Below, in pieces: positions 10,256 through 24,853 of a stretch of 25,124 nt of DNA. A program made the translations under genes and the position numbers. The first letter of the stretch is position 1. Each line of letters begins with the position of its first letter. Source of the DNA: a virus; IMG/VR virus record IMGVR_UViG_3300037264_007625, positions 1 to 25,124 of that record; one strand, written 5' to 3'. The notes beneath the pieces are model-generated. The model was given only the letters and a program-made list of their open reading frames with translations, was not told the origin of the DNA and made no database searches.

Positions 10256-10555
10256 TTATTTAGTTTCTATTATAACTAGATTGTATGCATTTGCAATTGC
10301 ATTTTCAATTACGCAACCTCTGGCTTTTCTCCAGCCAGGACCAAAATAGACAATATCTGCTTTAGACAGGAAAAGTATGGATTGGCCAAGATACCAAATT
10401 GGATTAGCATTATGCGGAGCATTTTTTACGAAAGAATCAATTAGAGTAATTTCATCGCCGTAAGTTTCTTTTACTTCTTTTAGAATTTTATCTCTTACTT
10501 CGAGAATTTCCTCATCCGTTTTGCCATTCATTGGTTGACTAATAAATAGTTTCAT
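10256..10555 (-). CDS. DUF4406 protein, nucleoside 2-deoxyribosyltransferase-like fold
   Basis: A 99-residue protein with the N-terminal signature 'MKLFISQPMNGKTDEEI', 'LSKADIVYFGPGWRKARGCV' and 'IENAIANAYNLVII'. The [FI]SQPMxGK start, the A-D-x-V-x-F-x-x-G-W-x-x-A-R-G-C-x-x-E core (E84) and a final hydrophobic strand mark the DUF4406 family, related to nucleoside 2-deoxyribosyltransferases. Members are common in phages, but no reaction is established for this short form. It is cytoplasmic, with no membrane segment. It sits between the tail tube gene and the chaperones, after an intrinsic terminator, with its own strong SD (AAAAGGAG, 9 bases before the ATG). It does not look structural, so I read it as a cargo ('moron'-like) gene. 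Confidence 0.78.
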   Translation of the reverse strand: MKLFISQPMNGKTDEEILEVRDKILKEVKETYGDEITLIDSFVKNAPHNANPIWYLGQSILFLSKADIVYFGPGWRKARGCVIENAIANAYNLVIIETK

Positions 10556-11938: not shown

Positions 11939-13696
11939 CTATACCTGCGCGCGCTCGATAACCAAAGCAGCCTTAGGCAGAGTCAAAGCACCAGAGCAGC
12001 GAGTCTCGATCAAATACTTGTACTGATTGTAATCGATATCGAAATCGTCAAACATCGATACATTGCCACCCTTGTCGGCGCCAATAGTGTAATCAAAGAG
12101 ATTGACAATGATACCGAGCAGATCATATTCAACAGTATCAGTACGATGTAAACCTTCCATGATGGGGACTTCAACAATTGCAGAAACACGCAAAGCCGCA
12201 GATAAATCTGCTTCCGTCTTGTAAACGCGATAACCAAGACTGTCTTTAATCAGAAGCATTTGGGTCAAGAAAGTAGGACTTACAAAGAGACTCGGTCTTC
12301 CAGATCCTTTGTAATTGGTGCGTCCTAGAATAATCTTATCCATAACTTCTTCGGGAAGATTATCAGTGGACGGAAGTTGCAGTTTGTGCGAATATAGAAC
12401 ATCATCCTTCCAAATATTCCGCATGCATGTTTCATCGATCTTATCTTCTGAAGCTTGTGAACGACCATCACCTACCAGCACTGCACGAGCAATTTCCTCG
12501 TCCAGCATAACGCGCATCTCTGCCTTCAACCATGCTACAATATCCAAATCAGTAATATCTAAAATATCATTCCGATCCAGTTTCTGTTTCTTGTAGATTG
12601 TGGTTGGACCAGTTGATCGCTTCAAAAGACCAAATACCTCATCGTGCTTTTGAGCGCCGGTAACATAACCCATGGCTCGAGCAGTTTCAACTGTAACATC
12701 AGCATACACACTCTTAATACGAGCAAATGGAGTGTGCTTAGTCCCGCTCATAACAGGGGCAACCCAAGTAGTTTCACGTTTAAGAAAAGCTGGTGAATCA
12801 GCTAAAAGGCGGGCATCGGGAAATAGATAATCAATATTGTCAATACCATAAGTCCCAGCATGCGCCAGAATGGATTGCTTAAGCGATCCAAATTTCCAAG
12901 CATCGGCGATAACCTCTGTAAGTTGATCGTGACTAAGATACTGGCGATTGCTACCACTAATTGCGGATCCGTCAAATACGTTGTTTTTCATTATACCTTG
13001 ATCTCCTTCATCTTCAAAATTGTCGGATTGTTGTATAGATGTATCTACTGATTCTTCAGAAATAGCACCTATAATAGCATAAACAGCAGTCTTTTGTTTT
13101 TCGTTAAGGGTATTAAAAACATCCTCAACAGTTTCATCATCTGCACTAGGTGCAGGCGCATCAGCATGCTCAACAACAGGAGCAACTGGTTTCATTGGCT
13201 TTTCTGGTTTTACTGGCTTTTCTTCCTCTATTTCCAATCCTAAACCAGTATAAATAACTGCTTCTTCTTCAATCTTATCATAAGTACCATCGCCATGATC
13301 CAAAGCTAAATTATCAATCACAGCCCCAGGGTTGGCTCCGGCTAAAACAAGACTGATTTCACGAATCATACCATGAATAACATTCTTAGATTTCTCAATT
13401 AATTGATTCGCGTAAATCGATAGATATGATACATCGCCATGCTCAACCAGAATTCTAGCATTCTTTCCAGGTTCAGTATCATTAAATACACAATACGCAT
13501 AAACACCATCGTCACGATTTTCTAGTAATGCATGTCCTAGAACATTGGACGGTTCGTTATGTTGATGCTGCCAAACTAATGGTACTGTCTGACCATCATT
13601 TTCCTTAAATGCATCCTTAAGAATTGTTCGCCCATCCGTGCATTTAAGGCCGTTTTTAGTGGCCCAGCCACCAAAATCGTATTTAGGTTTACCCAT
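11939..13696 (-). CDS. Prohead protease-major capsid protein fusion (HK97 type)
   Basis: A 585-residue protein joining two head proteins. Residues 1-135 are a HK97-type (S78) prohead protease: 'VWQHQHNEPSNVLGHA' with the catalytic His candidate (H44 or H46), 'DVSYLSIYAN' with the likely nucleophile S93, and 'IREISLVLAGANPGAVI' (111-127). Residues 155-185 are a Pro/Glu/Lys-rich linker, and 186-215 a helical segment 'ETVEDVFNTLNEKQKTAVYA', resembling a delta/scaffold region. Residues about 236-585 are an HK97-fold major capsid protein ('VTVETARAMGYVTGAQKHDE', then 'IARAVLVGDGR'). An internal ATG at 12991 (M236) with AAGGAGA upstream could give free capsid protein. Upstream SD AAGGAG sits in the last codons of the portal gene. 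Protease and capsid identities are strong; how the two products are made is inferred. Confidence 0.9.
   Translation of the reverse strand: MGKPKYDFGGWATKNGLKCTDGRTILKDAFKENDGQTVPLVWQHQHNEPSNVLGHALLENRDDGVYAYCVFNDTEPGKNARILVEHGDVSYLSIYANQLIEKSKNVIHGMIREISLVLAGANPGAVIDNLALDHGDGTYDKIEEEAVIYTGLGLEIEEEKPVKPEKPMKPVAPVVEHADAPAPSADDETVEDVFNTLNEKQKTAVYAIIGAISEESVDTSIQQSDNFEDEGDQGIMKNNVFDGSAISGSNRQYLSHDQLTEVIADAWKFGSLKQSILAHAGTYGIDNIDYLFPDARLLADSPAFLKRETTWVAPVMSGTKHTPFARIKSVYADVTVETARAMGYVTGAQKHDEVFGLLKRSTGPTTIYKKQKLDRNDILDITDLDIVAWLKAEMRVMLDEEIARAVLVGDGRSQASEDKIDETCMRNIWKDDVLYSHKLQLPSTDNLPEEVMDKIILGRTNYKGSGRPSLFVSPTFLTQMLLIKDSLGYRVYKTEADLSAALRVSAIVEVPIMEGLHRTDTVEYDLLGIIVNLFDYTIGADKGGNVSMFDDFDIDYNQYKYLIETRCSGALTLPKAALVIERAQV
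12989..13008 (-). promoter_or_regulatory. Internal ribosome binding site and start for free capsid protein
   Basis: Inside the protease-capsid gene, AAGGAGA (13008-13002) precedes an in-frame ATG (12991-12989) by 10 bases, as strong as the SD sites of the other genes. Starting here gives a 350-residue protein (11939..12991) that begins MKNNVFDGSAISG and covers exactly the capsid domain. No sequencing or protein data confirm its use. Confidence 0.6.
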
Positions 13697-13699
13697 TAT

Positions 13700-15007
13700 T
13701 TATAAACTCCTTCCATTTTGATTAGTATTAACTAAATTACTCCAACTAAGATTATAAGGTGCCTCTGGTTCAGCACTTACTTCTGGCGTTGGTTCCGGTT
13801 CGGACACTGGTTCTGGTGCTGATTGTGGTTGATTAAGATTCTTATTACGTAATTCATCAGCACCAGTCTGATCACTGGGCTTACGTCCAACAATCTGACG
13901 AATTTCATTAGAACTTAGAACCTCATTCCGAGTAAATTTGTCAGCTATGTCAGCAATTTGACTAACCGGAACAAGTTTAAACGGATCTCTAAGCCCCATA
14001 ATAGATTGACCTTGCGTCCGACCAGTTTTTGTGATGAACACACGCCTCATTGCATCTACAACTGCAGCAAGAATGGGTTCAATTGATCGATTGTAATAAT
14101 TGATCATTTCTTTTTCGTCTGCCGTACCATCAAAGACAGCTTTCGTTAATCCTAACTGGCTGTAAAGCATACTCGTCAGGAATTCAATCTGTCCCATCAG
14201 GTTATTTTCGGCAGGTCGATTCAATTGGGTAACCCTTTCTGTGCCATCTGTATACGCAATGCCATACTTTGAACCTTTTAATTGATCTTCAATATCTTTT
14301 CTTCGGTTCTCGGCTTGCTGTTTTCGTGCCTCAGTTTTGATTACATATGGTAATTGAATAATTAAATCCAATTTTCCCGATCCACTTTGACTATCTATTA
14401 CATCTAACAAATTTAATTTTGTTATAAGACGTTGTAACGTGGAGTTTGGTTCATTCATTACTTGATAAAGTGGATTTTCAACAATAGCAACTATAGATTT
14501 AGGAAGTGTAATATCTTGTTTATATCCAGTTTCATCATTATAAACATTAACACGTACATGTTTTGGATACCATCCAACAATTTTTGCTGTTCGCATAGTT
14601 GAAATATCATATGATCCAGTAACATTAGGATTCAATGTAGTATCAATAGGAACTATTGCCACAACCCCTTCATCGCACATGGACATCACTACATCTTGTA
14701 TAAATGCACGACCTGTTTGATCTATATTTGCTTCTAACGTAAGACAATTATTAAGACCAGATTCGATAGTCTCAATGTATCTTTCATCATCATCTAAGCG
14801 AACATGTTGAATAGGAATTGAAGCTACATCTATACCAATTCGAGTATAAATAGAAGAAACAATTGAAGTTTCTGTTCCCATTCTTGAACGATATAAATCT
14901 GGTCTAATGCTATAAGCAGGTCCAATATTTGTATATGCTTGCTGTGACTCGCCGTATCGGATGGCATTCCATGCATGTTTTAAACGATCACCAAATGTAT
15001 TTGGCAC
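13700..15007 (-). CDS. Portal protein (HK97 family)
   Basis: A 435-residue protein. Features include N-terminal 'SSIYTRIGIDVASIPIQHVR' (51-70), the helical 'MGQIEFLTSMLYSQLGLTKA' with 'VFDGTADEKEMINYYNRSIE' following, and the C-terminal 'NEVLSSNEIRQIVGRKPSDQ' with 'GADELRNKNLNQP'. These are typical of HK97-type portals, the dodecameric ring through which DNA enters and leaves the head. The C-terminus (about 393-417) is a Pro/Glu-rich linker, then 'YNLSWSNLVNTNQNG'. The start is a GTG at 15007, chosen because AAGGAGG lies 9 bases upstream. It is followed after 3 bases by the protease-capsid gene, the normal order. Confidence 0.9.
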   Translation of the reverse strand: MPNTFGDRLKHAWNAIRYGESQQAYTNIGPAYSIRPDLYRSRMGTETSIVSSIYTRIGIDVASIPIQHVRLDDDERYIETIESGLNNCLTLEANIDQTGRAFIQDVVMSMCDEGVVAIVPIDTTLNPNVTGSYDISTMRTAKIVGWYPKHVRVNVYNDETGYKQDITLPKSIVAIVENPLYQVMNEPNSTLQRLITKLNLLDVIDSQSGSGKLDLIIQLPYVIKTEARKQQAENRRKDIEDQLKGSKYGIAYTDGTERVTQLNRPAENNLMGQIEFLTSMLYSQLGLTKAVFDGTADEKEMINYYNRSIEPILAAVVDAMRRVFITKTGRTQGQSIMGLRDPFKLVPVSQIADIADKFTRNEVLSSNEIRQIVGRKPSDQTGADELRNKNLNQPQSAPEPVSEPEPTPEVSAEPEAPYNLSWSNLVNTNQNGRSL

Positions 15008-15073: not shown

Positions 15074-16009
15074 TTAGAAAGCGCTACCAAGAGAAACACG
15101 ACGCCAATTTTTATCAACTACCGTATTATCCGCGGAGGCAATATACAAATATGTAGCATCAACCATAGGCTGACCATGTATCCCTATGGTTCCATTTATT
15201 CCACCGGCCATTTTTACTGCAGCTCCAGTAAACGCTCCATTAGTCATTGTTTCAGCAAGTGCAATATTATTAGCAGCAACACCAGCTACATCCGCAGTCA
15301 AAAGTACGTCAGTACCTGAGCCATTAGATGCAGTAACGCCCTGAGTATCATTAGCATTGATTACTGTAACAAGATGTGATTGCGCATTTGCAGCAGAACA
15401 ATTTGTTCCACCTGCTAATGCTGTTAAACTAAAAACATTTGAACCAGATGTAAAGTTTTCTGTAGTTGCAATTGAATTGCCGACAGTTCCACCAACTAAG
15501 GCAGTAATAGCACTTACATCTCCTGCAAATGTAGCAGCACTAACTAGTGGATGAGGAGTATTGTGTCCATCAGTACCATTAATGGCGGCCACAATAGCTA
15601 ATTTAGCACTTGCCAAACTGGTTGCAACGCTAATCTCTGTATCCAAATTATCAGTACCATTGGGAACAAATACATAAATTTTTGCCCCGATGGTCATTGT
15701 ATCACCGGCGGTAGGTTGAACGGCGATGGTTAAATTATCGGTAGCATGCGCTGCATGATCCGAAATATCAATTGCAATATTCGTTGGAAGAGTCTTGGTC
15801 AAAGCAGTATCAGCGCAAAATTCATATTTCTGGGTTCCAATACTTACAGTTTCACTATCAACTGCTACACCAGATACTCCCAATGTCATCGTTGCATTAA
15901 CAGCATTTACTGGAGTTCCATACCCTCCTAACATTCTTAATTTTTCATGAAAATCAATCTTTGCTCCTGAGAAGTAAGCAAGATCCTCATATGTTAAATC
16001 TGTAGTCAT
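15074..16009 (-). CDS. Beta-repeat virion protein, likely head decoration or fibre
   Basis: A 311-residue protein rich in A, T, G, N and V, with few charged residues. After a 40-residue N-terminus (MTTDLTYEDLAYFSGAKIDF) it holds repeating beta units of the type 'GDTMTIGAKIYVFVPNGTDN', 'AAINGTDGHNTPHPLVSAAT' and 'GGTVGNSIATTENFTSGSNV', with a second partial copy ('QSHLVTVINANDTQGVTASN', then 'NNIALAETMTNGAFTGA'). I know this 'GKxYxF…GNxIATTE' unit from phage structural proteins of unassigned position. The ending 'YLYIASADNTVVDKNWRRVS' plus LGSAF is a common C-terminal cap in such proteins. It starts in an ATGA overlap with the previous gene (GGAG 10 bases upstream). Placement before portal favours a head-associated role; this is inferred. 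Confidence 0.65.
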   Translation of the reverse strand: MTTDLTYEDLAYFSGAKIDFHEKLRMLGGYGTPVNAVNATMTLGVSGVAVDSETVSIGTQKYEFCADTALTKTLPTNIAIDISDHAAHATDNLTIAVQPTAGDTMTIGAKIYVFVPNGTDNLDTEISVATSLASAKLAIVAAINGTDGHNTPHPLVSAATFAGDVSAITALVGGTVGNSIATTENFTSGSNVFSLTALAGGTNCSAANAQSHLVTVINANDTQGVTASNGSGTDVLLTADVAGVAANNIALAETMTNGAFTGAAVKMAGGINGTIGIHGQPMVDATYLYIASADNTVVDKNWRRVSLGSAF

Positions 16010-16380
16010 TTGATATTTTCTCCTTCAGTTTTTGGTTCTTCTGCTGTTAGTTCTTCAACTTCTGGCTCTTCAACTTTTGTTGCTTTTGTTACTTTTACTA
16101 CTTTTACTGCTTTTACTACTTTTGGTTCTCCAGCACTTCTATAAGCTTTAACAAAATCCATTACAATTTCATTGGAATCAACTAACTGTTCAAATTCTTT
16201 ATAAGAATATACTTTTTGAAATTGAACAGCGCTCACGGTTTTAGCATTTTTTTCCCAATCCACTGCAACTGTCTCTTTTTTCTTATCACTTACAATACTG
16301 ACATTTCCTCCCATTGAGGCTTCAATACGCTCAACAGTCGTTCTAACAACCCTATCAAAATATCCTACAGTAGTAAACAT
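16006..16380 (-). CDS. Small protein with Lys/Val repeat tail, unknown function
   Basis: A 124-residue protein I do not recognise. Residues 1-85 look folded (MFTTVGYFDRVVRTTVERIE, then 'FQKVYSYKEFEQLVDSNEIV'). Residues 87-124 are low complexity: six copies of a [PVT]-K-[VA]-type tripeptide and then an acidic Glu-rich end (EEPEVEELTAEEP). It has a TAGGAG site before the ATG and an ATGA overlap with the next gene. Its place among putative virion proteins suggests a structural or assembly part, perhaps with a flexible tail for binding a partner, but there is no direct evidence. Confidence 0.6.
   Translation of the reverse strand: MFTTVGYFDRVVRTTVERIEASMGGNVSIVSDKKKETVAVDWEKNAKTVSAVQFQKVYSYKEFEQLVDSNEIVMDFVKAYRSAGEPKVVKAVKVVKVTKATKVEEPEVEELTAEEPKTEGENIK
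16072..16125 (-). repeat. Six 9-base tandem repeats coding for K/V/A/T tripeptides
   Basis: On the minus strand six consecutive 9-base units of the form [CGA][CT]AAAAG[TC][AT] fill exactly 54 bases and encode P-K-V, V-K-A, V-K-V, V-K-V, T-K-A and T-K-V. Copy number could vary by slippage. Confidence 0.75.
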
Positions 16381-16399
16381 GTATTTTCTCCTATATACT

Positions 16400-16759
16400 T
16401 TAATTTTCTCTTACTGGAATAATAATAGTTTTATCTAAAGTTCTACCATCATCAGTAGTAATTCGGCAAGTTATTGGATAATCTTTATTGGCTACTCCAC
16501 CTTCTAGCCAAATAGTGCAGACAGTATTTATTGGATAGTCAACTCCTGCTATAGTAACAGCATTTTGATTAGAACTTTTTTTAACTAATTCTGGTGGATC
16601 ATTTACTGGCATAATCCATGAAACTGTTGATATGGTTCCTCCTTGGAGTTCACCATGATCATTTTTCATTCCATCATTACGACCAGTTTCTGTATCACAC
16701 CAAACAACAAAATATGGTTCTTCGTTATCGGGATCTTTACTTGGTAATAATGTTTGCAT
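16400..16759 (-). CDS. Small all-beta phage structural protein ('KDPxE' type)
   Basis: A 119-residue protein from ATG 16759. The in-frame TTG just upstream would leave too short a gap to the AAGGAGG site. It contains 'LLPSKDPDNEEPYFVVW', 'GGTISTVSWIMP', 'TVCTIWLEGGVANKDYPITC' and 'RITTDDGRTLDKTIIIPV'. The K-D-P-x-x-x-x-x-Y start, the T-I-S-x-x-x-W core and the 'VWLxGGxxxxxYxVTxxIxTxxGR' finish are known to me from a widespread family of about 110-130-residue phage proteins with an Ig-like beta fold, often near head or fibre genes and without assigned function. It follows the fibre gene after 9 bases. Family recognition is fair; the role is inferred. Confidence 0.65.
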   Translation of the reverse strand: MQTLLPSKDPDNEEPYFVVWCDTETGRNDGMKNDHGELQGGTISTVSWIMPVNDPPELVKKSSNQNAVTIAGVDYPINTVCTIWLEGGVANKDYPITCRITTDDGRTLDKTIIIPVREN

Positions 16760-16768
16760 CAAACCTCC

Positions 16769-19700
16769 TTACTTATTTGACCGTTTATCTCGCCAATTAA
16801 TCGAAGCACGTTTATCTCGCCAATTAACTGATGCACGTTTATCACGGAATAATACTGTTATAGAATGATTTCCATCATTATATACATATAACGATGGTGG
16901 TTCAGCTATAATTGATTTATATTGGTTCAAATTAATATTACTATAACCAATTAAAACAGTTATAATAGTTGCAATATCTATTCTTCCAAGTTCAACCTGT
17001 TCAAAAATGGTTGGACTATCGACTAATATTAATTGATTATTACGTTGTAAATTAATATTTTCTAATAGATATCGACTATCAAAAACTACTAAACCATATA
17101 ACTGAGATAAAGTTATTAACTCAGGTATTACTATCTGTGAATTAGTAATTAATCCATTAAATTTATTAACGGTGATATTCTCGTTAGCAATACTTTCTGA
17201 AATAATACTTAATCCACTAGATTTAGAAAATATCAAGTTATTAAAAATTTGACATTGTTCAGCAATAGTTATTCCGTTTAATCGATCAAATATCAAACTA
17301 TTATATACTTTACTTTGCTCGATAATACTTATTCCATTTAATCGATTAACACTTACACTTTCAGTTACATGACTTATTCCTTCTTGTAATACTGTTAATC
17401 CGATAAAACGATCAAATATTACACTCTCACTATATTGTCCCCTTGTCTCTTCAGTTATAATTATTCGAATAAATTTTGCTAAAGAGAAATAATCGTTAAC
17501 TTGACATTGTGTTGTTCCACTTATTTCAGTTAATCGATTTAAAATTAAATTATCATTGACTTGACATTGCGTTGTTCCACTTATTCCAATTAATCGATTT
17601 AAAACCGTATTATCATTAACTTGGCATTGTGCATCTGTGTTTATACCAATCAATCGATTAATACTTATATTTTCATTTACATGACTTATTCCTTCTTGTA
17701 ATACTGTTATAGCAATAGAACGTGCTAATATAACAGTTTCATTAATAAAACCTTGCGTTTCTTCTAGTACTGTTATATCAATAAATTTTGCTAAACTAAC
17801 TGCATCTTTTTCATTCGTCTGTGTCTCACTAGTTTGTGTGTTAGAGCGTGAAAGGATAAGTGTTTCCAGAATAGTAGGTCTCTCACTCGTTGCTCCAATA
17901 CCTATAAAACCCACTAGCGTTATCCCATCTCCGATAACTAGTTGATTAACAACAGTGATACCGATGAACTTCACTAGTGTCACAGATTCTTCAATTGTTG
18001 GTCGTGCACCTTCTGAGGCCAAATCTGCAGAATATAAAAGAATAACTGTTTCCAAAATAGTAGGTCTGGCACTCGTCGTTGTAATACCTACAAAACGCAC
18101 TAATGTCGCTAGATCTTCGATAATTACTTGACTAGGAGCCGTAATACCGATGAACTTTGCTAGTGTCGCCCCATCTCCAATAACCAGTTGATTAAGAGCA
18201 CTAATACCTTTGAAATTTGCTAATATTACAGATTCTTCAATTGCTGCTCGTACACCTTCTGACGTCAAACCCCCAGAACGTGTTAGTGTAAATAATTCGA
18301 GAAAAGTCTTTATTTCAAAAATAGAAACGCCATCAAACTTGGCCAACGATGTTACATCGAAAACATTCACATTTGTTAGTGCACTAATACTTTTAAACTT
18401 CGCTAACGATACTGCGCCTTGTACGATTACCTGTTCCGAGACAGAAACGCCTTTATGTACAGTAAGTGTCGTTCCATCTTCGGTACCGGAGAATGGTTGA
18501 GTAACCTTCAGGATCTTACCAAGCGAGACAGACTCTTCTGTTCCTGCTGGGCCAGCGATTTTGAATGTTGCGATCATCGCAAGCCAACCAGCATCGTAAG
18601 TCTGTGTGAATGTAGCATTGTAAACGTCTATGGCCGATACAACTCTATCTTCTGTTCCAATTATATTTGTAAAGTTCCCATCAGTATATACATTTCGTAA
18701 ACGATAATTCGATCCTGGATTGGGATGCATAAAGGTACTTGCATAGGGAGTAAACGCCCCAACTAGCAACTCCTGTGCTTGTACTGTTGCGGTTGTATTT
18801 CCACTATTAGGAGTAGTACCACTAGTTGCTTGATCACCATGATTCTTGTCAAGTGGATCCGAGGTAGTTAACCCAGGGTACTCATGGATTACAATCGTAA
18901 TCGACGGAGTGTCGGCACCTGCAAACGTTACAGTAGTTGCGCCTCCGGTGACATTATACGCGTAATACATCCCAAGATGCAGAGCACTATCCCCAGAATA
19001 AGTAAGTACCGAACCGATCAGTGTGTATGTATTCGAGTGATTATCACTGATCGCAGTTGCCCCCATGATAGTACCACCGTACTGTGCAATCATTACAACA
19101 ATCACATTGCCTGTAGTTACATTTTTCTTAAAAGAGCATGGTACGGAGTTTGCCATGAGCCAGTATTGATTAGACTGAACAATGTTATCAGTAAAATTTA
19201 GTGCAGTTCGTAAAGCATACCACCAGCGGATCGCAATCATATAACTATGGGGTTGACCAAAGTGAATACCAGTAAGTTCGCTAGCCTTGATGTCTGCGAA
19301 ATCAGGTCCAGTCAACACATGACTATTGTCACCCCATGCAGTATTAATAGCATTGTTTACTGCTGTATTGTCTGCTACGTAAGGCGGATTGTCCATATTG
19401 AAAATCGTACACGGCATAAGTTTGCAACCCAAATCCGTCCAAATCGCATCAGCAAGAGAATCCATAGCAGTATTGTAATTTGCCTCTGTCGTTTCCTGAA
19501 GGGCATCATCTTCACCCTGCCAATACAGAACTGCATTGACTCCACCTGACTGAATCGATCGATAGACCATCGAACCATACAATGTTGCTCGATCCTGATG
19601 ATCTGTTCCAGGTTGCCAACTAGCGATACTAGTTGAGGTCAATGCACAAGGTATAAACTCCACTGGAATGCCAGTAGCTTGCAAAATATAAGTTGATAGG

Positions 19701-20176
19701 ATTGTCCATGCCGATCCATTGCAACTCGCATCGAGTGATACAGTGTCAACCTGATTTGTAGCATCATCTGATGGATCAAGTAACTCCTTCCAATTGTAAT
19801 CATTGCCAAATAATGTTGGCATAATACCAGAAGCGGAGTAGTAATAGTTCGGACCGTTACCATATCCAGCTGCGTTTGATTGTCCTGCAATTGCGAATCT
19901 ATATCCAACACCAATGAGAGTGACAGACGCATTTTCTCCGACATCATTTGTGAAACGAACCGTTAAAGTTCCTTGCCCAACAGATTGACTCGAAAGCGTA
20001 CCCGAATACGTTCCTCCCGATGGAGAAGCAACAATTGTAGCATATGCACCACCATTAAAAGATGCCTCAATCGCAGTGGGCGTTCCTGTATACGTACCTG
20101 AAATCGCGATGTCGCCAATAGCGCCATTCGATTTGAATGTTCGCTTAGTTACCGGAGATGTAATTGTGATCGCCAT
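16769..20176 (-). CDS. SGNH esterase-repeat fibre protein (putative virion adhesin)
   Basis: A 1135-residue modular protein. Residues 1-90 form an Ig-like beta domain. Residues 91-325 form an SGNH/sialate O-acetylesterase-like domain: 'AIAGQSNAAGYG' with nucleophile S100, 'SIASWQPG', 'VLYWQGEDDA' (216-225) and 'LTGIHFGQPHS' with H305. The residue three before H305 is Thr where Asp is usual. Residues 330-545 form a second beta domain ('VTTGNVIVVMIAQYGG', 'VIHEYPGL') of a type seen in adhesins. Residues 585-1070 hold about 24 units of 20-22 residues built around [LV]x[KR][FL]xGI. The end (1109-1135) has three RDKR units. The likely job is removing acetyl groups from a host surface glycan while displayed on a fibre. 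SD GGAG lies in the last codons of the preceding gene. The esterase domain is fairly sure; the virion location is inferred. Confidence 0.78.
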   Translation of the reverse strand: MAITITSPVTKRTFKSNGAIGDIAISGTYTGTPTAIEASFNGGAYATIVASPSGGTYSGTLSSQSVGQGTLTVRFTNDVGENASVTLIGVGYRFAIAGQSNAAGYGNGPNYYYSASGIMPTLFGNDYNWKELLDPSDDATNQVDTVSLDASCNGSAWTILSTYILQATGIPVEFIPCALTSTSIASWQPGTDHQDRATLYGSMVYRSIQSGGVNAVLYWQGEDDALQETTEANYNTAMDSLADAIWTDLGCKLMPCTIFNMDNPPYVADNTAVNNAINTAWGDNSHVLTGPDFADIKASELTGIHFGQPHSYMIAIRWWYALRTALNFTDNIVQSNQYWLMANSVPCSFKKNVTTGNVIVVMIAQYGGTIMGATAISDNHSNTYTLIGSVLTYSGDSALHLGMYYAYNVTGGATTVTFAGADTPSITIVIHEYPGLTTSDPLDKNHGDQATSGTTPNSGNTTATVQAQELLVGAFTPYASTFMHPNPGSNYRLRNVYTDGNFTNIIGTEDRVVSAIDVYNATFTQTYDAGWLAMIATFKIAGPAGTEESVSLGKILKVTQPFSGTEDGTTLTVHKGVSVSEQVIVQGAVSLAKFKSISALTNVNVFDVTSLAKFDGVSIFEIKTFLELFTLTRSGGLTSEGVRAAIEESVILANFKGISALNQLVIGDGATLAKFIGITAPSQVIIEDLATLVRFVGITTTSARPTILETVILLYSADLASEGARPTIEESVTLVKFIGITVVNQLVIGDGITLVGFIGIGATSERPTILETLILSRSNTQTSETQTNEKDAVSLAKFIDITVLEETQGFINETVILARSIAITVLQEGISHVNENISINRLIGINTDAQCQVNDNTVLNRLIGISGTTQCQVNDNLILNRLTEISGTTQCQVNDYFSLAKFIRIIITEETRGQYSESVIFDRFIGLTVLQEGISHVTESVSVNRLNGISIIEQSKVYNSLIFDRLNGITIAEQCQIFNNLIFSKSSGLSIISESIANENITVNKFNGLITNSQIVIPELITLSQLYGLVVFDSRYLLENINLQRNNQLILVDSPTIFEQVELGRIDIATIITVLIGYSNINLNQYKSIIAEPPSLYVYNDGNHSITVLFRDKRASVNWRDKRASINWRDKRSNK
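16782..16853 (-). repeat. 27-base tandem repeat coding for the RDKRASxNW tail
   Basis: Two nearly identical 27-base units (16782-16808 and 16809-16835) and a diverged partial third (16836-16853) encode R-D-K-R-A-S-[VI]-N-W twice, in the reading order RDKRASVNW, RDKRASINW, RDKRSNK. They form the extreme C-terminus of the fibre protein. Confidence 0.85.
16967..18424 (-). repeat. About 24 tandem 60-66-base units in the fibre gene
   Basis: Core motifs start at residues 591, 611, 631, 652, 672, 692, 713, 734, 754, 775, 796, 817, 839, 859, 879, 899, 921, 943, 963, 983, 1003, 1023, 1043 and 1063. Typical units read 'LAKFIGITAPSQVIIEDLAT' and 'LNRLIGISGTTQCQVNDNLI'. Some adjacent copies are close at the DNA level: 17497-17556 and 17557-17616 differ at 8 of 60 bases by my count. 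Alternating hydrophobic residues suggest a beta-solenoid or beta-rod. Confidence 0.85.
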
Positions 20177-20178
20177 GA

Positions 20179-20979
20179 CTAAGCTCCATATAACGTTTCA
20201 AAATATGATCTACCTTCGATAGTAGATAATCCAAGAAACTTATTCGCCGCAGAAGTCTCGTCAACCGTCGTAATCCAGCTCACGATAACCTGGCCGTTAC
20301 CACCAGTACCACCTACTCGATTTACACCAGTCGTAGTATTCGAACGTCCAGCACCTCCACCACCAGCGCCAGCAGCAGTACGCCAGTTATTACCATTAGC
20401 ATTCCTTGCACCACCATTACCACCGGAACCACCACCTCCAGCTCCAGTCGCACCCGTCACTGTAGTAACAGGAACATCATTTCCTGCAGCAGCGTTACCT
20501 GCTCCTGCGCCTGCTCCTGCTCCGATGCTCGCACCGCCATTATTAGCACCATTGCCACCTTTGTAAGATGTGATGCCCCCACCAGAAATATTAGCAGCTC
20601 CACCTAGACCTGCCTTATTGCCAGTGTTAGCTCCATGAATACCAAAGCCACCACCATTCGCAGAAACGATTGTGGCCGTATTACCACCCGAGTTATTGTT
20701 AAAGACAGTCGAACCACCCCCAGTACCATTTACATTTCCAGTACCACCGCCTCCACCAGCACCAATAGAAAATCCGTGGATATTACCTGCTACAAGTCCA
20801 CTTACAACTATTTTAGAATAAGCTCCACCACCAGCACCACCAGCACCACCAGCAGTAGAATTATTATTGGATCCGCCACCTCCTCCACCAGCACCCCAAA
20901 TCTCAACTGTAACCTGAGTAACACCAGTAGGAACGGTCCAAGTTCCAGCACCACTAATCGTGTAAGTGTTGTTAGGCAT
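20179..20979 (-). CDS. Glycine-rich virion protein, putative fibre or adhesin
   Basis: A 266-residue protein from ATG 20979 (MPNNTYTISGAGTWTVPTGV). It overlaps the glycosyltransferase stop by 8 bases. A GTG at 20985 is in frame, but the GTGGGG site is better placed for the ATG. Residues 10-35 ('WTVPTGVTQVTVEIWGAGGG') match the start of the glycine-rich surface-protein domain seen in phage tail and bacterial exported proteins. Residues 30-230 are dominated by G, A, N, S and T with GGGG runs, probably a polyglycine helix bundle or beta structure. The last 28 residues (DETSAANKFLGLSTIEGRSY, then FETLYGA) match one unit of the repeat in the next gene. It is likely displayed on the particle and may bind host surfaces. 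Whether it sits on head or tail is unknown. Confidence 0.7.
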   Translation of the reverse strand: MPNNTYTISGAGTWTVPTGVTQVTVEIWGAGGGGGGSNNNSTAGGAGGAGGGAYSKIVVSGLVAGNIHGFSIGAGGGGGTGNVNGTGGGSTVFNNNSGGNTATIVSANGGGFGIHGANTGNKAGLGGAANISGGGITSYKGGNGANNGGASIGAGAGAGAGNAAAGNDVPVTTVTGATGAGGGGSGGNGGARNANGNNWRTAAGAGGGGAGRSNTTTGVNRVGGTGGNGQVIVSWITTVDETSAANKFLGLSTIEGRSYFETLYGA

Positions 20980-21646
20980 GAACACCCCACTGATCTAAGA
21001 TTCCACGCATCTGCACAACCTTCTCTTCGGTTGTCATCGTATACTGGTGCCATAAATAATTACCAGTATCGCCGAGTTCTTTCATTAAACCTAACAACGT
21101 CTTAAATTTTAATCCAAATCGAGCAATATTCCTCGAAAGAATATAATCATCGATTAAATGCTCTCGCGTAATTACAGAATTCAATTCTACCTGTATCGGA
21201 AAAATATTCAACAGTGCCTGCTCATAACTTATGTCATCTAGCGGATGCCATAAATCGATACACCAGTCCGATGCAACCGTAAACCAGTTGCACGATCCAA
21301 TATGACGACCATCGCGTCGAAAGTAATTATCATACTTCCACCGATTATTAGCTAAATCTACGCCATTATGCATTACTGTATCTTTTCCGATAAACTCTGT
21401 CGCATCAAACAAATCAGGATGAACAAGAGCATCTGAATCAATGTATATATTCCAATCAGAATTTTGACCAAGATTAAAAATTTGTAATTTCTCATAGACA
21501 GGTGGTAGGGACGGATATTTACGATCGGTTATGACGTGAAAATCCGCCCCTATCTTATGAGCATATCTTTTAAAAAGCGGATAAGTAAGAGCGGTAATTT
21601 CAGGAGCATAGCCGTCTACATTTAATGTAAACAGCGTTTTCTTCAT
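20972..21646 (-). CDS. GT-A-type glycosyltransferase
   Basis: A 224-residue cytoplasmic-type protein with no signal or membrane segment. 'MKKTLFTLNVDGYAPEITAL' begins a Rossmann-like nucleotide-sugar fold. 'WNIYIDSDALVHPD' (65-78) carries the D-x-D motif (D70, D72) that binds the metal and nucleotide sugar in GT-A enzymes. 'GSCNWFTVASDWCIDLW' (117-133), 'IDDYILSRNIARFG' (165-178) and 'YLWHQYT' (H200) are in the order expected for acceptor and metal-binding elements of GT8/GT34-like enzymes. The exact family and sugar are unknown. It is wedged between structural genes: one base after the 188-residue gene (weak SD, so coupled) and overlapping the glycine-rich gene. This context suggests it sugars a neighbouring virion protein, though host-glycan modification is possible. 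Confidence 0.8.
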   Translation of the reverse strand: MKKTLFTLNVDGYAPEITALTYPLFKRYAHKIGADFHVITDRKYPSLPPVYEKLQIFNLGQNSDWNIYIDSDALVHPDLFDATEFIGKDTVMHNGVDLANNRWKYDNYFRRDGRHIGSCNWFTVASDWCIDLWHPLDDISYEQALLNIFPIQVELNSVITREHLIDDYILSRNIARFGLKFKTLLGLMKELGDTGNYLWHQYTMTTEEKVVQMRGILDQWGVHA

Positions 21647-21647
21647 A

Positions 21648-22214
21648 TTAACTCGCAGCAGCAGTACAAGTAATGGTTACATTCAGAACATCATTGTCAA
21701 CCAATGCACGATTCTGAGAGAATACTCCACCACCATACAGAATACCAGTCGTGCCACCCTTATTATTGGTAGTAACAATAAAAGCACCACCCAAAGTTAC
21801 GGTACCCGAGATCGTAAAGACTGCTTTACTAGCTGAATTGTCAACGCTCTTACCAGCTACAGTACCAAGAGTTAACACGGGACGGGTTGCTTCATCATAA
21901 GTAGTTTGCTCAGTCCAGCCCGCATGTGCACCGCTCATGGTATCAGCCGCAGCAAAAGTTGGAGTAGCACCAACCACACCAACATACCAAGCAGCCGTAT
22001 AAGCAGAACCCTTCAAATGCTTATCCAAAGAGTCATTCAATCCAACATCGACTACAAGATTGTCAAATTCCTCAGTCCACAAAAGTTCGCCATCTCGAAA
22101 TGCTTCAACTTTATAACGATTTTTCAAAAATTTCTCAATATTAAGTGTTCCTGGATTAGCAACAACACTGGCACTTACATTAATATCATTTGAACGATCT
22201 TGACTTTCACTCAT
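21648..22214 (-). CDS. Beta-rich phage structural protein (decoration/fibre type)
   Basis: A 188-residue protein. 'NRYKVEAFRDGELLWTEEFD', 'NLVVDVGLNDSLDKHLKG', 'AAWYVGVVGATPTFAAADTM' and 'SGAHAGWTEQTTYDEATRPV' make a pattern I know from a widespread phage protein family ('DGxLLWTEEFxNLVxxxGLN…WYVGLxGxxPTFAAADTM…GWTE'). It is usually annotated as a structural or hypothetical protein. The rest is beta-rich with small residues (GTVTLGGAFIVTTNNKGG) and ends TAAAS. It starts 25 bases after the terminase stop with a TAGGAGA site. It is probably a virion surface component; position in the head block suggests head decoration, but this is inferred. Confidence 0.7.
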   Translation of the reverse strand: MSESQDRSNDINVSASVVANPGTLNIEKFLKNRYKVEAFRDGELLWTEEFDNLVVDVGLNDSLDKHLKGSAYTAAWYVGVVGATPTFAAADTMSGAHAGWTEQTTYDEATRPVLTLGTVAGKSVDNSASKAVFTISGTVTLGGAFIVTTNNKGGTTGILYGGGVFSQNRALVDNDVLNVTITCTAAAS

Positions 22215-22239: not shown

Positions 22240-23985
22240 TTATTCGAATTGATCTTTATTAGCTTTATACGCTACATATGCGTCCATCATGGCCGCAACA
22301 GGATCAATCTTCTGTTCGTAGCGCTTTTTCAAAAGTTTTCTATTACCATTAGTATCTTCAAGTGTTATGGCATTACCCATTGCAAACGTCATAAGCTCTT
22401 GATCAAAAATAAGCATACGTTCTTCTGAAAGGGTCTTTAATTCACCAAGTGGCACAGATTCAGTTTTTGCCCCCTGGATAACTTTTTCTATAGCATAAGA
22501 TCCATTTTCCCTTTCCCATCTCTCAATGAATTCTTTTGCATTATAGGGATCAAATCCTACACAGCGAACATCATAACTTGAATCGACTATAAAGTTATCT
22601 AAATCGTCATAAACCTCCATCATGTCCAGAACAGTACATTCAAGAACCTGTAAACTAGTTTCTTCAATGAATTGTTCGTATTTCATTCTCATCGCACCTG
22701 GTAATTTCTTTAAGGTTAATGAAGAAATATAGCAACGAGTCTTAATCCCAAATGACCCATTTGCTAATGGAAATAAGAATAAGAAAGCGCAGAAATCATC
22801 TCCTTGCGAAAGATCGAATCCCAATGCACACGGCAGAGACCAAAAATCTCTATGTCTATGTGTAAGTGTCTCTTCATAGGTAAAGAAATAGGTATAACCC
22901 TCCATGGGAATTCCAAATCGTTTGGCAAGAATATCGTTTCTTGTAGAAGGTACTTTTTCAGCCCTTTCAACATCCAACTGATAGGTCTCATAAGTTACAG
23001 TTCTTCCAAGATTGGGATTAGCCTTCAGCCACATTCTTGGATCGTTCACTTCTTGAACATCGTCGAGTTTGTAATACCAAATCGATACATGGGGATTAAT
23101 GTAATCACCTTTTAAGATGTCCATTAATTCCATTTTGATTGTGTCACCACTACTGTTACGAATAGTACCTTCTGAACTCATTGCAACGATCAAATAGTTA
23201 TCTAACTTAGAAGCACCCTGTTCAATGGCTCCAACTACATCTTCTCGAATATCTCCGGATAACCATTCATCAATTGTGGCAATCATAGGACGTAATCCTT
23301 GAAGTTTATCTATAGACATAGGACGTACTTCAAGTAACGAACCAGTCAGAAAATTTTCAATTCCCTTCTTTGTAGATGCCAACTTTTGACGCATCACTCG
23401 TGAACCCGTAGTATTTTGTAATGACCCTTCAGTTAAGAATTTAAATAAAGGACCACGCGATCGAGTAATTGAAGTTCGTATAGGTGACATAACTTCTTCC
23501 GCCTGCTTCATCGTGGGCGCGGTGGTAATTTGATGAGTTGTTGCTGTATCAACATTTAAAAAATAATTATGTATACAAGAAGCATACATTGATTTAGCAG
23601 CACCACGAGCAACAATCAAGTATTGTTTATTAACTAGACGTTTTTTAATTCGTTTACGTATATACTTTCCACCATGATTACTAGGAGTTGGTACGTAGAC
23701 ACTTCGTTCAACAAAGTAATACCATCCAAAAATTTGCTCTGCCCATAATTTAAAAGTATCAAGTAAAGTTAAGTCACTTCCATCAGTTAGAGTAAGTTCA
23801 GATTCACAGTATTTTACAAAGCCTTCTACAGCTTGATCATCATAGAAAACTCCAGGGTTCTCTATTAACTGATCGATCCTATTCATTTCCATGGAGATTT
23901 CTTTGCATACGGGAATTTCTCCTTTTAAAACTTTTTTACGAAATTCACCATAATAAATAGGAATTGCTGTATTTAATAAAGACAT
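22240..23985 (-). CDS. terL: Terminase large subunit (HK97-type)
   Basis: A 581-residue DNA-packaging motor protein. The ATPase half has 'YLIVARGAAKSMYAS' (122-136) as a Walker A variant, 'TTAPTMKQAEEV' (154-165), 'RPMIATIDEW' (232-241) as Walker B with D239 and E240, and 'LIVAMSSEG' (265-273) as the coupling motif. The nuclease half has 'ALGFDLSQGDD' (387-397, D391), 'CVGFDPYNA' (475-483, D479) and 'KIDPVAAMMDAYVAY' (559-573), giving the acidic metal-binding set. Length is normal for the family. It cuts concatemeric DNA and drives it into the prohead through the portal. There is no clear SD before the ATG; the upstream gene ends 5 bases earlier, so coupled translation is likely. The small terminase is not in the window. 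Confidence 0.95.
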   Translation of the reverse strand: MSLLNTAIPIYYGEFRKKVLKGEIPVCKEISMEMNRIDQLIENPGVFYDDQAVEGFVKYCESELTLTDGSDLTLLDTFKLWAEQIFGWYYFVERSVYVPTPSNHGGKYIRKRIKKRLVNKQYLIVARGAAKSMYASCIHNYFLNVDTATTHQITTAPTMKQAEEVMSPIRTSITRSRGPLFKFLTEGSLQNTTGSRVMRQKLASTKKGIENFLTGSLLEVRPMSIDKLQGLRPMIATIDEWLSGDIREDVVGAIEQGASKLDNYLIVAMSSEGTIRNSSGDTIKMELMDILKGDYINPHVSIWYYKLDDVQEVNDPRMWLKANPNLGRTVTYETYQLDVERAEKVPSTRNDILAKRFGIPMEGYTYFFTYEETLTHRHRDFWSLPCALGFDLSQGDDFCAFLFLFPLANGSFGIKTRCYISSLTLKKLPGAMRMKYEQFIEETSLQVLECTVLDMMEVYDDLDNFIVDSSYDVRCVGFDPYNAKEFIERWERENGSYAIEKVIQGAKTESVPLGELKTLSEERMLIFDQELMTFAMGNAITLEDTNGNRKLLKKRYEQKIDPVAAMMDAYVAYKANKDQFE

Positions 23986-23990
23986 ATTAT

Positions 23991-24356
23991 TTACCCAAGA
24001 ACTCTCTTCGCTATAGGGTAACTGGTACCCAGAAAAATATCAATTAATTTCATAGTACCTAATACAGCCATGGTGGCAGCTACAGCTTTTTGGCCAGTAC
24101 TTAATGAATTCCAATATTTTTCACCTGGTGTTAATTCGTTCATTTTTAAATTTTGTACTTTTTTTAACGAACTTTGTATATGTTGTTTAGATACTGGTTT
24201 ACCTCTTATTGTGGTCATCTCGGATACTGGTTTGCCTCTTATTGTAGTCGTTCTAGGCACTGGTTTACCTCTTACCGTGGTATTTCCAGCACTTCTACGT
24301 GTACCCCATCGCATTCCCACAACACCGACATGCTGCAAATATTCTTTATCAACCAT
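23991..24356 (-). CDS. HVGVxGMxWG-motif protein B with RGKPV repeats, unknown function
   Basis: A 121-residue basic protein. Residues 8-21 hold QHVGVVGMRWGTRR, the H-x-G-x-x-G-x-[KR]-W-G-x-R-R motif shared with the upstream gene and seen, in my knowledge, in many phage structural proteins without a known role. Residues 25-57 are three 11-residue repeats (NTTVRGKPVPR, TTTIRGKPVSE, MTTIRGKPVSK). Residues about 87-110 (GQKAVAATMAVLGTMKLIDI) are hydrophobic enough for one membrane helix. SD AAGGAG precedes ATG 24356. It lies directly upstream of the large terminase. It could be a head-internal or membrane-contacting protein; nothing in the sequence decides. Confidence 0.6.
   Translation of the reverse strand: MVDKEYLQHVGVVGMRWGTRRSAGNTTVRGKPVPRTTTIRGKPVSEMTTIRGKPVSKQHIQSSLKKVQNLKMNELTPGEKYWNSLSTGQKAVAATMAVLGTMKLIDIFLGTSYPIAKRVLG
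24186..24284 (-). repeat. Three 33-base tandem repeats coding for TTxRGKPV units
   Basis: Three adjoining 33-base units encode 11 residues each with the shared core T-T-[VI]-R-G-K-P-V. The period is exact across all three copies (for example the shared ACTGGTTT element recurs every 33 bases). They are coding repeats in an open frame, not a CRISPR. Confidence 0.85.
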
Positions 24357-24379: not shown

Positions 24380-24853
24380 TTATACGATCATGTCACCAAC
24401 AGCAGCTAAAAGATCTTCAACTTTATTTTGAACTCTTGTCATTCTATCTTTACTTCGTTTAATATCTTTTACTTTAATACTTCCCTTAAAAAAATTTTCC
24501 CAGTATTGTCTATCTTTTTTAACACTAAATTTCTTTCCACGTCGTGCTGCACTAGTTATTCCTTCTTGAACTAAACTATCAATTGCACCCTTCACATCTT
24601 TTGAACGCTTTCTAGCTTGTTCTAGATTCTTTTTAAAACGTTCTCTTTCTTTCGCTTTTACTGCTGTTCGTAATTCGTTAGCTTTTCCTTTTTCACTTAA
24701 AGCTTTTCGATGTGCACTTTCTGAAAGCCCTTTTAGACCTACTGATCCTAAATTCTTAGACCAACGTTCTGAAAGAGCTGAACGCCTATCAGCACGACGT
24801 ACCCCCCATTTCATTCCTATAACTCCAACATGTTCTAATTTATCATCTTTCAT
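24380..24853 (-). CDS. HVGVxGMxWG-motif protein A, highly basic, unknown function
   Basis: A 157-residue protein with the motif EHVGVIGMKWGVRR at residues 7-20 and a strongly basic, helical body rich in K, R, E and S (for example 'KAKERERFKKNLEQARKRSK', about 86-105). It ends in a short hydrophobic stretch (LLAAVGDMIV). SD AGGAGG lies in the last codons of the upstream gene, about 11 bases before the ATG. The motif and position just before a second motif protein and the terminase suggest a head-related phage protein, perhaps one that binds DNA or scaffold given its charge. I cannot name a function. Confidence 0.6.
   Translation of the reverse strand: MKDDKLEHVGVIGMKWGVRRADRRSALSERWSKNLGSVGLKGLSESAHRKALSEKGKANELRTAVKAKERERFKKNLEQARKRSKDVKGAIDSLVQEGITSAARRGKKFSVKKDRQYWENFFKGSIKVKDIKRSKDRMTRVQNKVEDLLAAVGDMIV

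What the first reader, a model, noticed from the sequence alone, without database searches (positions are those of the whole stretch)
15074..22214. Seven-gene accessory block between terminase and portal: a possible head-fibre module
In most HK97-type siphophages, portal follows the large terminase directly. Here about 7 kb of decoration-like, fibre-like and enzyme genes lie between them, while the tail already has its own receptor-binding-type protein at 984-2192. This suggests a second, head-borne set of host- or mucus-interacting fibres with esterase activity and sugar modification, possibly an undescribed combination.
Basis: inference. Interest (0 to 1): 0.6.

Follow-up and report, generated by a model that had tools for sequence, protein, structure and literature searches.

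The report
Phage fibre cassette between terminase and portal
A long-tailed phage carries, between its DNA-packaging genes, a plug-in set of genes that most likely builds an extra beaded fibre, probably mounted on the neck between head and tail and tipped with a sugar-trimming enzyme; the same kind of set recurs in many unrelated phages, and its position on the virus is still unproven.

Summary
In detail: seven collinear ORFs (15074-22214, minus strand) fill a 7.2 kb gap between TerL and portal. The premise needs correction: in this TerL family the interval is a variable accessory locus, and portal lies within 100 bp of TerL in only 20 of 59 IMG/VR and 21 of 68 genome loci.

The block is not one unit. 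Its core is a trio: g1 (21648-22214), the long fibre g4 (16769-20176) and g5 (16400-16762). g5 belongs to Pfam Gp77, the fibre-tail adaptor of podophage GP4. The g1 model resembles the GP4 fibre I chain in 8JOU (Z 9.1). g4 has a variable N-terminal payload (an SASA esterase only here), a 20-residue repeat shaft and a conserved C-terminus. The trio matches the unplaced three-protein virion module of siphophage LSH1 (PMC13243795).

Best reading: a bead-on-rope accessory fibre, more likely neck-borne than capsid-borne or tail-tip. Location is inferred, not shown; some relatives sit in tail genes. g3 is a companion adhesin with a C-terminal tag; the glycosyltransferase call for g2 is unproven. New variant of a recently described kind.

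The parts
21648..22214 (-). g1, 188 aa, phrog_8123; proposed bead subunit of the fibre
   Evidence: phrog_8123 E 1e-27; KPP25 ORF007 homologue in PDB 26la/44nx, E 3e-11; AF2 model pLDDT 86 resembles 8jou_a 'Fiber I and fiber-tail-adaptor of phage GP4' Z 9.1, rmsd 3.0, 119 of 136 aligned
20972..21646 (-). g2, 224 aa, glycosyltransferase-like (motif only); optional gene
   Evidence: no Pfam, PHROG, NCBIfam or significant PDB sequence match; DxD-like IDSD motif (recalled); present in several relatives
20179..20985 (-). g3, 268 aa, glycine-rich adhesin-like protein ending in a rope-like stub and the tag ETLYGA
   Evidence: Pfam Gly_rich_2 E 5e-13; fused to the rope in L094 at 62% identity; tag in 8 of 2934 distinct ORFs, all in g1 loci
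16769..20176 (-). g4, 1135 aa, fibre: N-terminal payload, repeat shaft, conserved C-terminal anchor
19349..19897 (-). SASA carbohydrate-esterase domain of g4 (residues 94-276)
   Evidence: Pfam SASA E 3e-20, 73.2 bits against cut-off 24.8; no match to g4 residues 1-300 in 12 homologous fibres
16997..18544 (-). repeat shaft ('rope') of g4, residues 545-1060, period 20
   Evidence: hydropathy autocorrelation 0.32 at lag 20; largest in 500 shuffles 0.17
16772..16870 (-). C-terminal tandem FRDKR-type decamers of g4, proposed anchor
   Evidence: last 110 aa match 12 of 12 homologous fibres
16400..16762 (-). g5, 120 aa, Gp77-family fibre-tail adaptor (ring protein in GP4)
   Evidence: Pfam Gp77 E 3e-13, 50.6 bits against cut-off 27; profile against 8jou_D E 6e-8
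16006..16380 (-). g6, 124 aa, unknown, found only in this window
   Evidence: no family match above cut-off; no homologue in the fetched loci
15074..16009 (-). g7, 311 aa, tandem surface-exposed-type domains; separate accessory gene
   Evidence: AF2 pLDDT 91; about 90-residue stretches resemble insertion domains of tail sheaths, T7-type tails and flagellins, Z 8-11; alone before portal in many loci
22240..23985 (-). TerL (upstream boundary)
   Evidence: Pfam TerL_nuclease E 2e-35, phrog_9 E 8e-111
13700..15007 (-). portal (downstream boundary)
   Evidence: Pfam Phage_portal E 3e-14, phrog_12 E 4e-41

Best explanation
The core of the block (g1, g4, g5) is an accessory beaded-rope fibre cassette of the GP4 fibre I / LSH1 gp34-36 kind, inserted in the variable TerL-portal locus of a siphophage. 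Proposed assembly: g5 (Gp77 family) forms a collar; the conserved C-terminus of g4 docks on it; copies of g1 sit as beads along the 20-residue repeats of g4; the N-terminal SASA esterase is the free end that removes acetyl groups from host or matrix glycans. g3 is a companion adhesin. The most likely site is the neck, close to portal and head-tail adaptor. Shown: gene content, family membership of g5, fold resemblance of g1, repeat shaft, conserved C-terminus and variable N-terminus of g4, recurrence of the cassette. Inferred: ring formation, bead threading, which end is anchored, neck position, enzyme activity.
For: g5 is Gp77 by Pfam and by profile to 8jou_D. g1's model resembles chain a of the same entry, 8JOU, and chains of the Bas63 connector (Z 7.1) and Sf14 neck (Z 6.9). 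Sf14 whiskers are made of two proteins in dimers, one chain threading through, encoded just after portal (PMC11821841 passages). In podophage BcepMigl a Pfam Gp80 gene, a 246-aa protein and, one gene on, the Gp77 gene follow an SU10-type adaptor. Gp77 occurs in 30 of 77 g1 records against 2 of 50 TerL relatives without g1 (Fisher p 5e-6). For 12 of 17 non-lineage loci with both g1 and g5 I annotated neighbours: 9 lie by TerL, portal or a head protease, 2 by tail-tip/baseplate genes, 1 unclear. g4 homologues: C-terminus matched in 12 of 12, N-terminal 300 residues in 0 of 12. LSH1 gp34-36 are described as a virion module with gp35 matching 8JOU_g, gp36 an Ig fold and gp34 a payload plus poorly predicted region (PMC13243795 section 16).
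Against: g1 has no detectable sequence relation to Gp80: no Pfam hit, hhalign to BcepMigl gp29 probability 0.4%; plain Foldseek gave no match at E <= 0.001, and the top structural hit was an HFTV1 tail protein (Z 9.8), not GP4. Gp77-like proteins also occur among tail-tip genes in Gordonia phage Vivi2 and Mycobacterium phage Baudelaire, and two IMG/VR cassettes lie by baseplate or central-fibre genes, so neck position is not fixed. 47 of 77 g1 records lack Gp77 (some are truncated). The rope-bead contact was not modelled. The SASA DxxH position reads TGIH (motif recalled), so catalysis is uncertain.
Confidence: 0.62

Rival explanations
1. Same beaded fibre, but mounted on the tail tip or baseplate; its place in the head gene cluster is only where the accessory locus happens to be.
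For: Gp77-like genes lie in the tail-tip region of Vivi2 and Baudelaire; cassettes L119 and L120 follow baseplate hub or central tail fibre genes; LSH1's module lies downstream of lysis genes, position unknown.
Against: 9 of 12 annotated non-lineage cassettes adjoin TerL, portal or protease; structural relatives of g1 include neck components.
Confidence: 0.25
2. True capsid head fibres or decorations spread over the capsid lattice (phi29- or Hoc-like).
For: Head gene neighbourhood; g7 resembles surface-exposed insertion domains.
Against: No Pfam head-fibre family hit for any block protein; g5 is a fibre-tail adaptor family. g7's relatives sit on tail and flagellar tubes, and g7 lies beside the major tail protein gene in some loci (L188, L191, L211).
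Confidence: 0.07
3. The block is a loose pile of independent accessory genes with no joint assembly.
For: g2, g3, g6 and g7 are each optional; the TerL-portal interval holds quite different genes in other loci, such as KWGVRR-motif genes.
Against: g1, fibre and g5 recur together in unrelated phages; LSH1's three genes always appear together in its relatives.
Confidence: 0.06

Closest known systems
Ralstonia podophage GP4 fibre I and fibre-tail adaptor (Gp80/Gp77, PDB 8JOU)
   Same: g5 in the Gp77 family; g1 fold like the 8JOU fibre chain; bead, candidate rope, ring gene order comparable in relative BcepMigl
   Different: Siphophage; g1 has no sequence match to Gp80; g4 joins payload and rope in one long chain; located between TerL and portal
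Alishewanella siphophage LSH1 gp34-36 module (PMC13243795)
   Same: three genes: N-terminal carbohydrate-active payload plus poorly predicted repeat-like region, GP4-fibril-like protein, Ig-fold protein; the paper counts them among the virion proteins found by mass spectrometry
   Different: Payload is lyase-like there, SASA esterase here; downstream of lysis there, TerL-portal here; LSH1 sequence not available for direct comparison
Shigella myophage Sf14 neck whiskers gp30/gp31 (PDB 9C39)
   Same: dimeric neck appendage proteins, a threading chain, genes next to portal; g1 model resembles chain 9c39_K, Z 6.9
   Different: Short whiskers without enzyme payload; which gene product chain K is was not checked
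Anabaena myophage A-1(L) bead-chain neck fibres gp80-gp82 (PMC10966104)
   Same: works alike: neck anchor, many beads, distal carbohydrate module
   Different: trimeric beads; no homologue of g1, g5 or g7 among 248 ORFs of the A-1(L) genome record
Rhodococcus phage ReqiPepy6 TerL-portal interval
   Same: same TerL family (77% identity); seven genes gp15-gp21 between TerL and portal, one called structural
   Different: no block homologue found by BLAST

Membership tests
GP4-type fibre I apparatus (Gp80 beads, rope, Gp77 adaptor) | Gp77-family adaptor protein | tested here: met
   g5: Pfam PF23148 50.6 bits against 27; 8jou_D E 6e-8
GP4-type fibre I apparatus (Gp80 beads, rope, Gp77 adaptor) | Gp80-type bead protein | tested here: inconclusive
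   fold: 8jou_a Z 9.1; sequence: no Pfam Gp80 hit, hhalign 0.4%; Foldseek no E <= 0.001
GP4-type fibre I apparatus (Gp80 beads, rope, Gp77 adaptor) | elongated rope protein threading the beads | tested here: inconclusive
   g4 has period-20 repeats; similarity to BcepMigl gp28 seen by eye only; gp28 had no significant PDB sequence match
GP4-type fibre I apparatus (Gp80 beads, rope, Gp77 adaptor) | 15-fold ring around the head-tail adaptor | not testable with these tools
   GP4 symmetry recalled from its abstract; DEV paper passage cites 15:12 mismatch 'like in the podophage GP4'
LSH1 gp34-36 virion module | three co-occurring genes: payload with repeats, GP4-fibril-like bead, Ig-like protein | tested here: inconclusive
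   architecture agrees with section 16 of PMC13243795; LSH1 sequences not held
LSH1 gp34-36 virion module | present in virions by mass spectrometry | not testable with these tools
   no virion of this phage is available
SASA carbohydrate esterase | SASA domain above the Pfam cut-off | tested here: met
   g4 residues 94-276, 73.2 bits against 24.8
SASA carbohydrate esterase | complete SGNH-type catalytic residues | tested here: inconclusive
   GQSN and WQGEDD present; expected DxxH reads TGIH; motifs recalled
phi29-type head fibre | match to a Pfam head-fibre family | tested here: not met
   no such family among hits at E <= 1 for the block or for 8 g7 relatives
GT-A glycosyltransferase (g2) | family or structure match | tested here: inconclusive
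   no match, nothing significant in 109; only a DxD-like motif
A-1(L) bead-chain neck fibre | homology to gp80-gp82 | tested here: not met
   no hit of g1, g5 or g7 profiles at E <= 1 in 248 ORFs; sequence only

The most novel reading that the evidence does not exclude
A portable, plug-in neck-fibre system shared by sipho-, podo- and myophages: a Gp77 collar holds a rope by its C-terminus, opposite to the usual N-terminal anchoring of tail fibres; g1-type beads stiffen the rope; swappable enzymes sit at the free N-terminus. Companion adhesins sharing the rope repeats and a C-terminal (E)ETLYGA-like tag co-assemble on the same chain, so one phage displays several carbohydrate-binding or -cutting heads besides its tail-tip receptor-binding protein.
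Probability: 0.35. Interest if true: 0.7.

Novelty: new variant of a known kind. Interest (0 to 1): 0.5.

Why it matters
If right, it gives the unplaced LSH1-type module a candidate attachment site and an anatomy that can be tested. It also explains its badly predicted region as a bead-binding rope, gives a rule for spotting such cassettes (phrog_8123 + Gp77 + a fibre with a conserved C-terminus), and identifies a variable locus in a widespread TerL family where enzyme-tipped accessory fibres are swapped.

Tried and rejected
Rejected: 'block moves as one unit' (only g1, the fibre and g5 recur). Rejected as unproven: glycosyl transfer by g2. Considered: a capsid-lattice head fibre (no family support).

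Led nowhere: g4 against named phages (no match); g1 against Gp80 by sequence and against CRP-345 gp56; BcepMigl gp28 against PDB (nothing significant); no g1 or g5 in 80 GTDB loci, so no cultured host for the cassette; KPP25 structure entries 26la/44nx/26fb found by sequence but no paper found. VIA-align listed no phi29-type head fibre for g7, which does not exclude one. Literature: the phrase 'fiber-tail adaptor' occurs in none of the papers listed; searches for siphovirus head fibre with esterase and for siphophage neck fibres listed no paper on this TerL-portal cassette, judged from titles and abstract starts except for the papers cited. The library lacks most subscription papers.

Rows dropped: alignments for modelling used 60 of 62 g1, 49 of 59 g7 and 22 of 25 g5 sequences plus the window's own. 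Neighbour annotation covered 12 of 17 non-lineage loci with g1 and g5; L109, L112, L130, L139 and L145 were not annotated. The Gp77 control used 50 of 74 TerL relatives without g1. Several loci are the same contig fetched twice (for example L002/L091/L170 and L012/L101).
Full report
Observation. The window is a 25,124 bp IMG/VR virus fragment. One search lists seven consecutive minus-strand ORFs between TerL (22240-23985) and portal (13700-15007); I call them g1 to g7 in order of transcription. TerL, portal and the fused protease-capsid gene are confirmed. The gap is 7232 bp.

The locus. Portal directly after TerL is not the rule in this TerL family. Of loci with both genes, 20 of 59 IMG/VR and 21 of 68 GTDB loci have at most 100 bp between them; medians are 504 and 536.5 bp, maxima 8037 and 7988 bp. 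Among named isolates, ReqiPepy6 has seven genes there, Rima three, RosaAsantewaa none. Contents differ: other loci hold KWGVRR-motif genes, g7 alone or the fibre cassette. It is an accessory hotspot.

The core trio. Close relatives show TerL - g1 - optional genes - fibre - g5 - g7 or another gene - portal (L002, L093, L094, L097, L107, L229, and L214 as far as its fragment goes; L012, L099, L100 and L105 with a 416-424 aa gene instead of g7). g5 is a Gp77-family protein, the fibre-tail adaptor of podophage GP4 (Pfam E 3e-13; profile against 8jou_D E 6e-8). g1 (phrog_8123) has a sequence homologue of 171 aa in KPP25, whose structure is deposited (26la, 44nx), the latter entry also holding KPP25 ORF006. 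Named podophages and an archaeal virus encode g1 relatives directly after a gene of the PHROG 'head closure Hc3' family (KPP25, AP1, ctwe8250 and one of the two MetMV copies); in VS-ABTNL-3 the preceding gene had no PHROG match.

Fold of g1. The AF2 model (mean pLDDT 86.2) gave no Foldseek match at E <= 0.001. VIA-align re-ranking put first 9h4p_BD (HFTV1 tail, Z 9.8, 136 aligned) and second 8jou_a (GP4 fibre I and fibre-tail-adaptor, Z 9.1, rmsd 3.0, 119 of 136), then Bas63 connector 9mt4_K (7.1) and Sf14 neck 9c39_K (6.9). The first two are tied (under 1 apart) and, by the tool's own note, Z under 8 may mean only a common arrangement. Sequence comparison with Gp80 found nothing. So the GP4 link is firm for g5 and moderate for g1. 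Two partners of one solved assembly recurring side by side adds weight.

The fibre g4. Its domains are SASA (residues 94-276), a further region and a repeat shaft (545-1060) with hydropathy autocorrelation 0.32 at lag 20; the largest value in 500 shuffles was 0.17. Fibres next to g1 in unrelated phages mostly show lags of 20 or 40 and end in tandem decamers with an xR motif. Against 12 homologous fibres, the window's residues 1-300 matched 0, the shaft 12 and the last 110 residues 12. The N-terminus is thus swapped and the C-terminus kept. I infer that the C-terminus is the anchor.

Companion adhesin. g3 is a glycine-rich protein that ends in a rope-like stub and ETLYGA. In L094 its domain is fused to the rope. 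A C-terminal ETL[YWF] tag occurs in 8 of 2934 distinct ORFs from the fetched loci, all 8 in loci with g1, on several different N-terminal types. Those loci were chosen through TerL, g1 and g7 searches, so this is not an unbiased sample.

Does the trio travel together? Gp77 is present in 30 of 77 records fetched by g1 and in 2 of 50 TerL relatives without g1 (Fisher p 5e-6). Records are fragments and related to each other, so p is only indicative. For 12 of 17 non-lineage loci holding both g1 and g5, PHROG scans of neighbours put 9 near TerL, portal or a head protease (L108, L110, L115, L118, L125, L129, L131, L142, L148), 2 near baseplate or central tail fibre genes (L119, L120) and 1 unclear (L124). 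L148's protease match is weak; its portal match is strong.

Where on the virion? For the neck: gene neighbourhood; g1's resemblance to neck chains; Sf14 whiskers built of gp30 and gp31 dimers with a threading chain, encoded after portal (PMC11821841, passages); DEV's 15:12 collar 'like in the podophage GP4' (PMC10925440, passages). I recall from the GP4 abstract, not seen here, that the 15-fold adaptor rings the head-tail adaptor and that fibre I also touches the head vertex. Against: Gp77-like genes in the tail-tip regions of Vivi2 (no g1 detected) and Baudelaire and cassettes L119 and L120. I put neck at roughly two chances in three given that the trio is a fibre.

g7 and the rest. The g7 model (pLDDT 91.3) contains domains like surface insertions of tail sheaths, T7-type tails and flagellins (best Z 11.4 over 91 residues). 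It is a separate accessory gene, usually just before portal, sometimes next to the major tail protein. g6 has no relatives here. g2 remains unidentified.

Compared with the literature. The June 2026 LSH1 paper (PMC13243795: section 16 whole, other passages) describes a three-gene virion module in a siphophage: gp34 with an N-terminal lyase-like payload and a poorly predicted remainder, gp35 matching 8JOU_g by HHpred (E 0.0075) and an Ig-fold gp36, position unknown. Its working model (gp36 attaches, gp35 fibril, gp34 payload) agrees with mine. A-1(L) neck fibres (PMC10966104, section 8 and passages) show that bead-chain neck fibres with a distal carbohydrate module exist, but no sequence relation was found. 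What this case adds: an SASA payload, placement in the TerL-portal hotspot, the 20-residue rope with conserved C-terminal decamers, companion adhesins with a shared tag, and frequent head-gene neighbourhood across phages.

Verdict. Position and enzyme activity need experiment.

Noticed in passing
window 23991-24356 and 24380-24853; L003:2582-4100; L312:10569-12139; L273:4306-7075: Several genes just upstream of TerL or within the TerL-portal region begin with an H-x-G-(V/I)-x-G-x-KWG(V/I)R motif in otherwise different proteins; function unknown.
   Followed up: partly
L025:5694-7516 and L053:3580-5162: Another recurring motif, HYNHNHDALGRF, near the N-termini of tandem genes in the same interval.
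   Followed up: no
L012:9048-10298 (a gene of similar length also in L099, L100, L103): A 416-aa protein with GNHD and GHIH motifs (metallophosphoesterase-like, motifs recalled) takes the place of g7 before portal.
   Followed up: no
window 11939-13696: Prohead protease and major capsid protein are fused in one ORF (phrog_3270 E 7e-217), as annotated in Streptomyces phage RosaAsantewaa.
   Followed up: no
window 10256-10555: A small nucleoside 2-deoxyribosyltransferase-like gene (phrog_355 E 1e-11) sits inside the tail gene cluster.
   Followed up: no
L129:4116-5681 and L125:3752-5131: In phages of other lineages the g5 gene is directly followed by the head protease or portal gene.
   Followed up: partly
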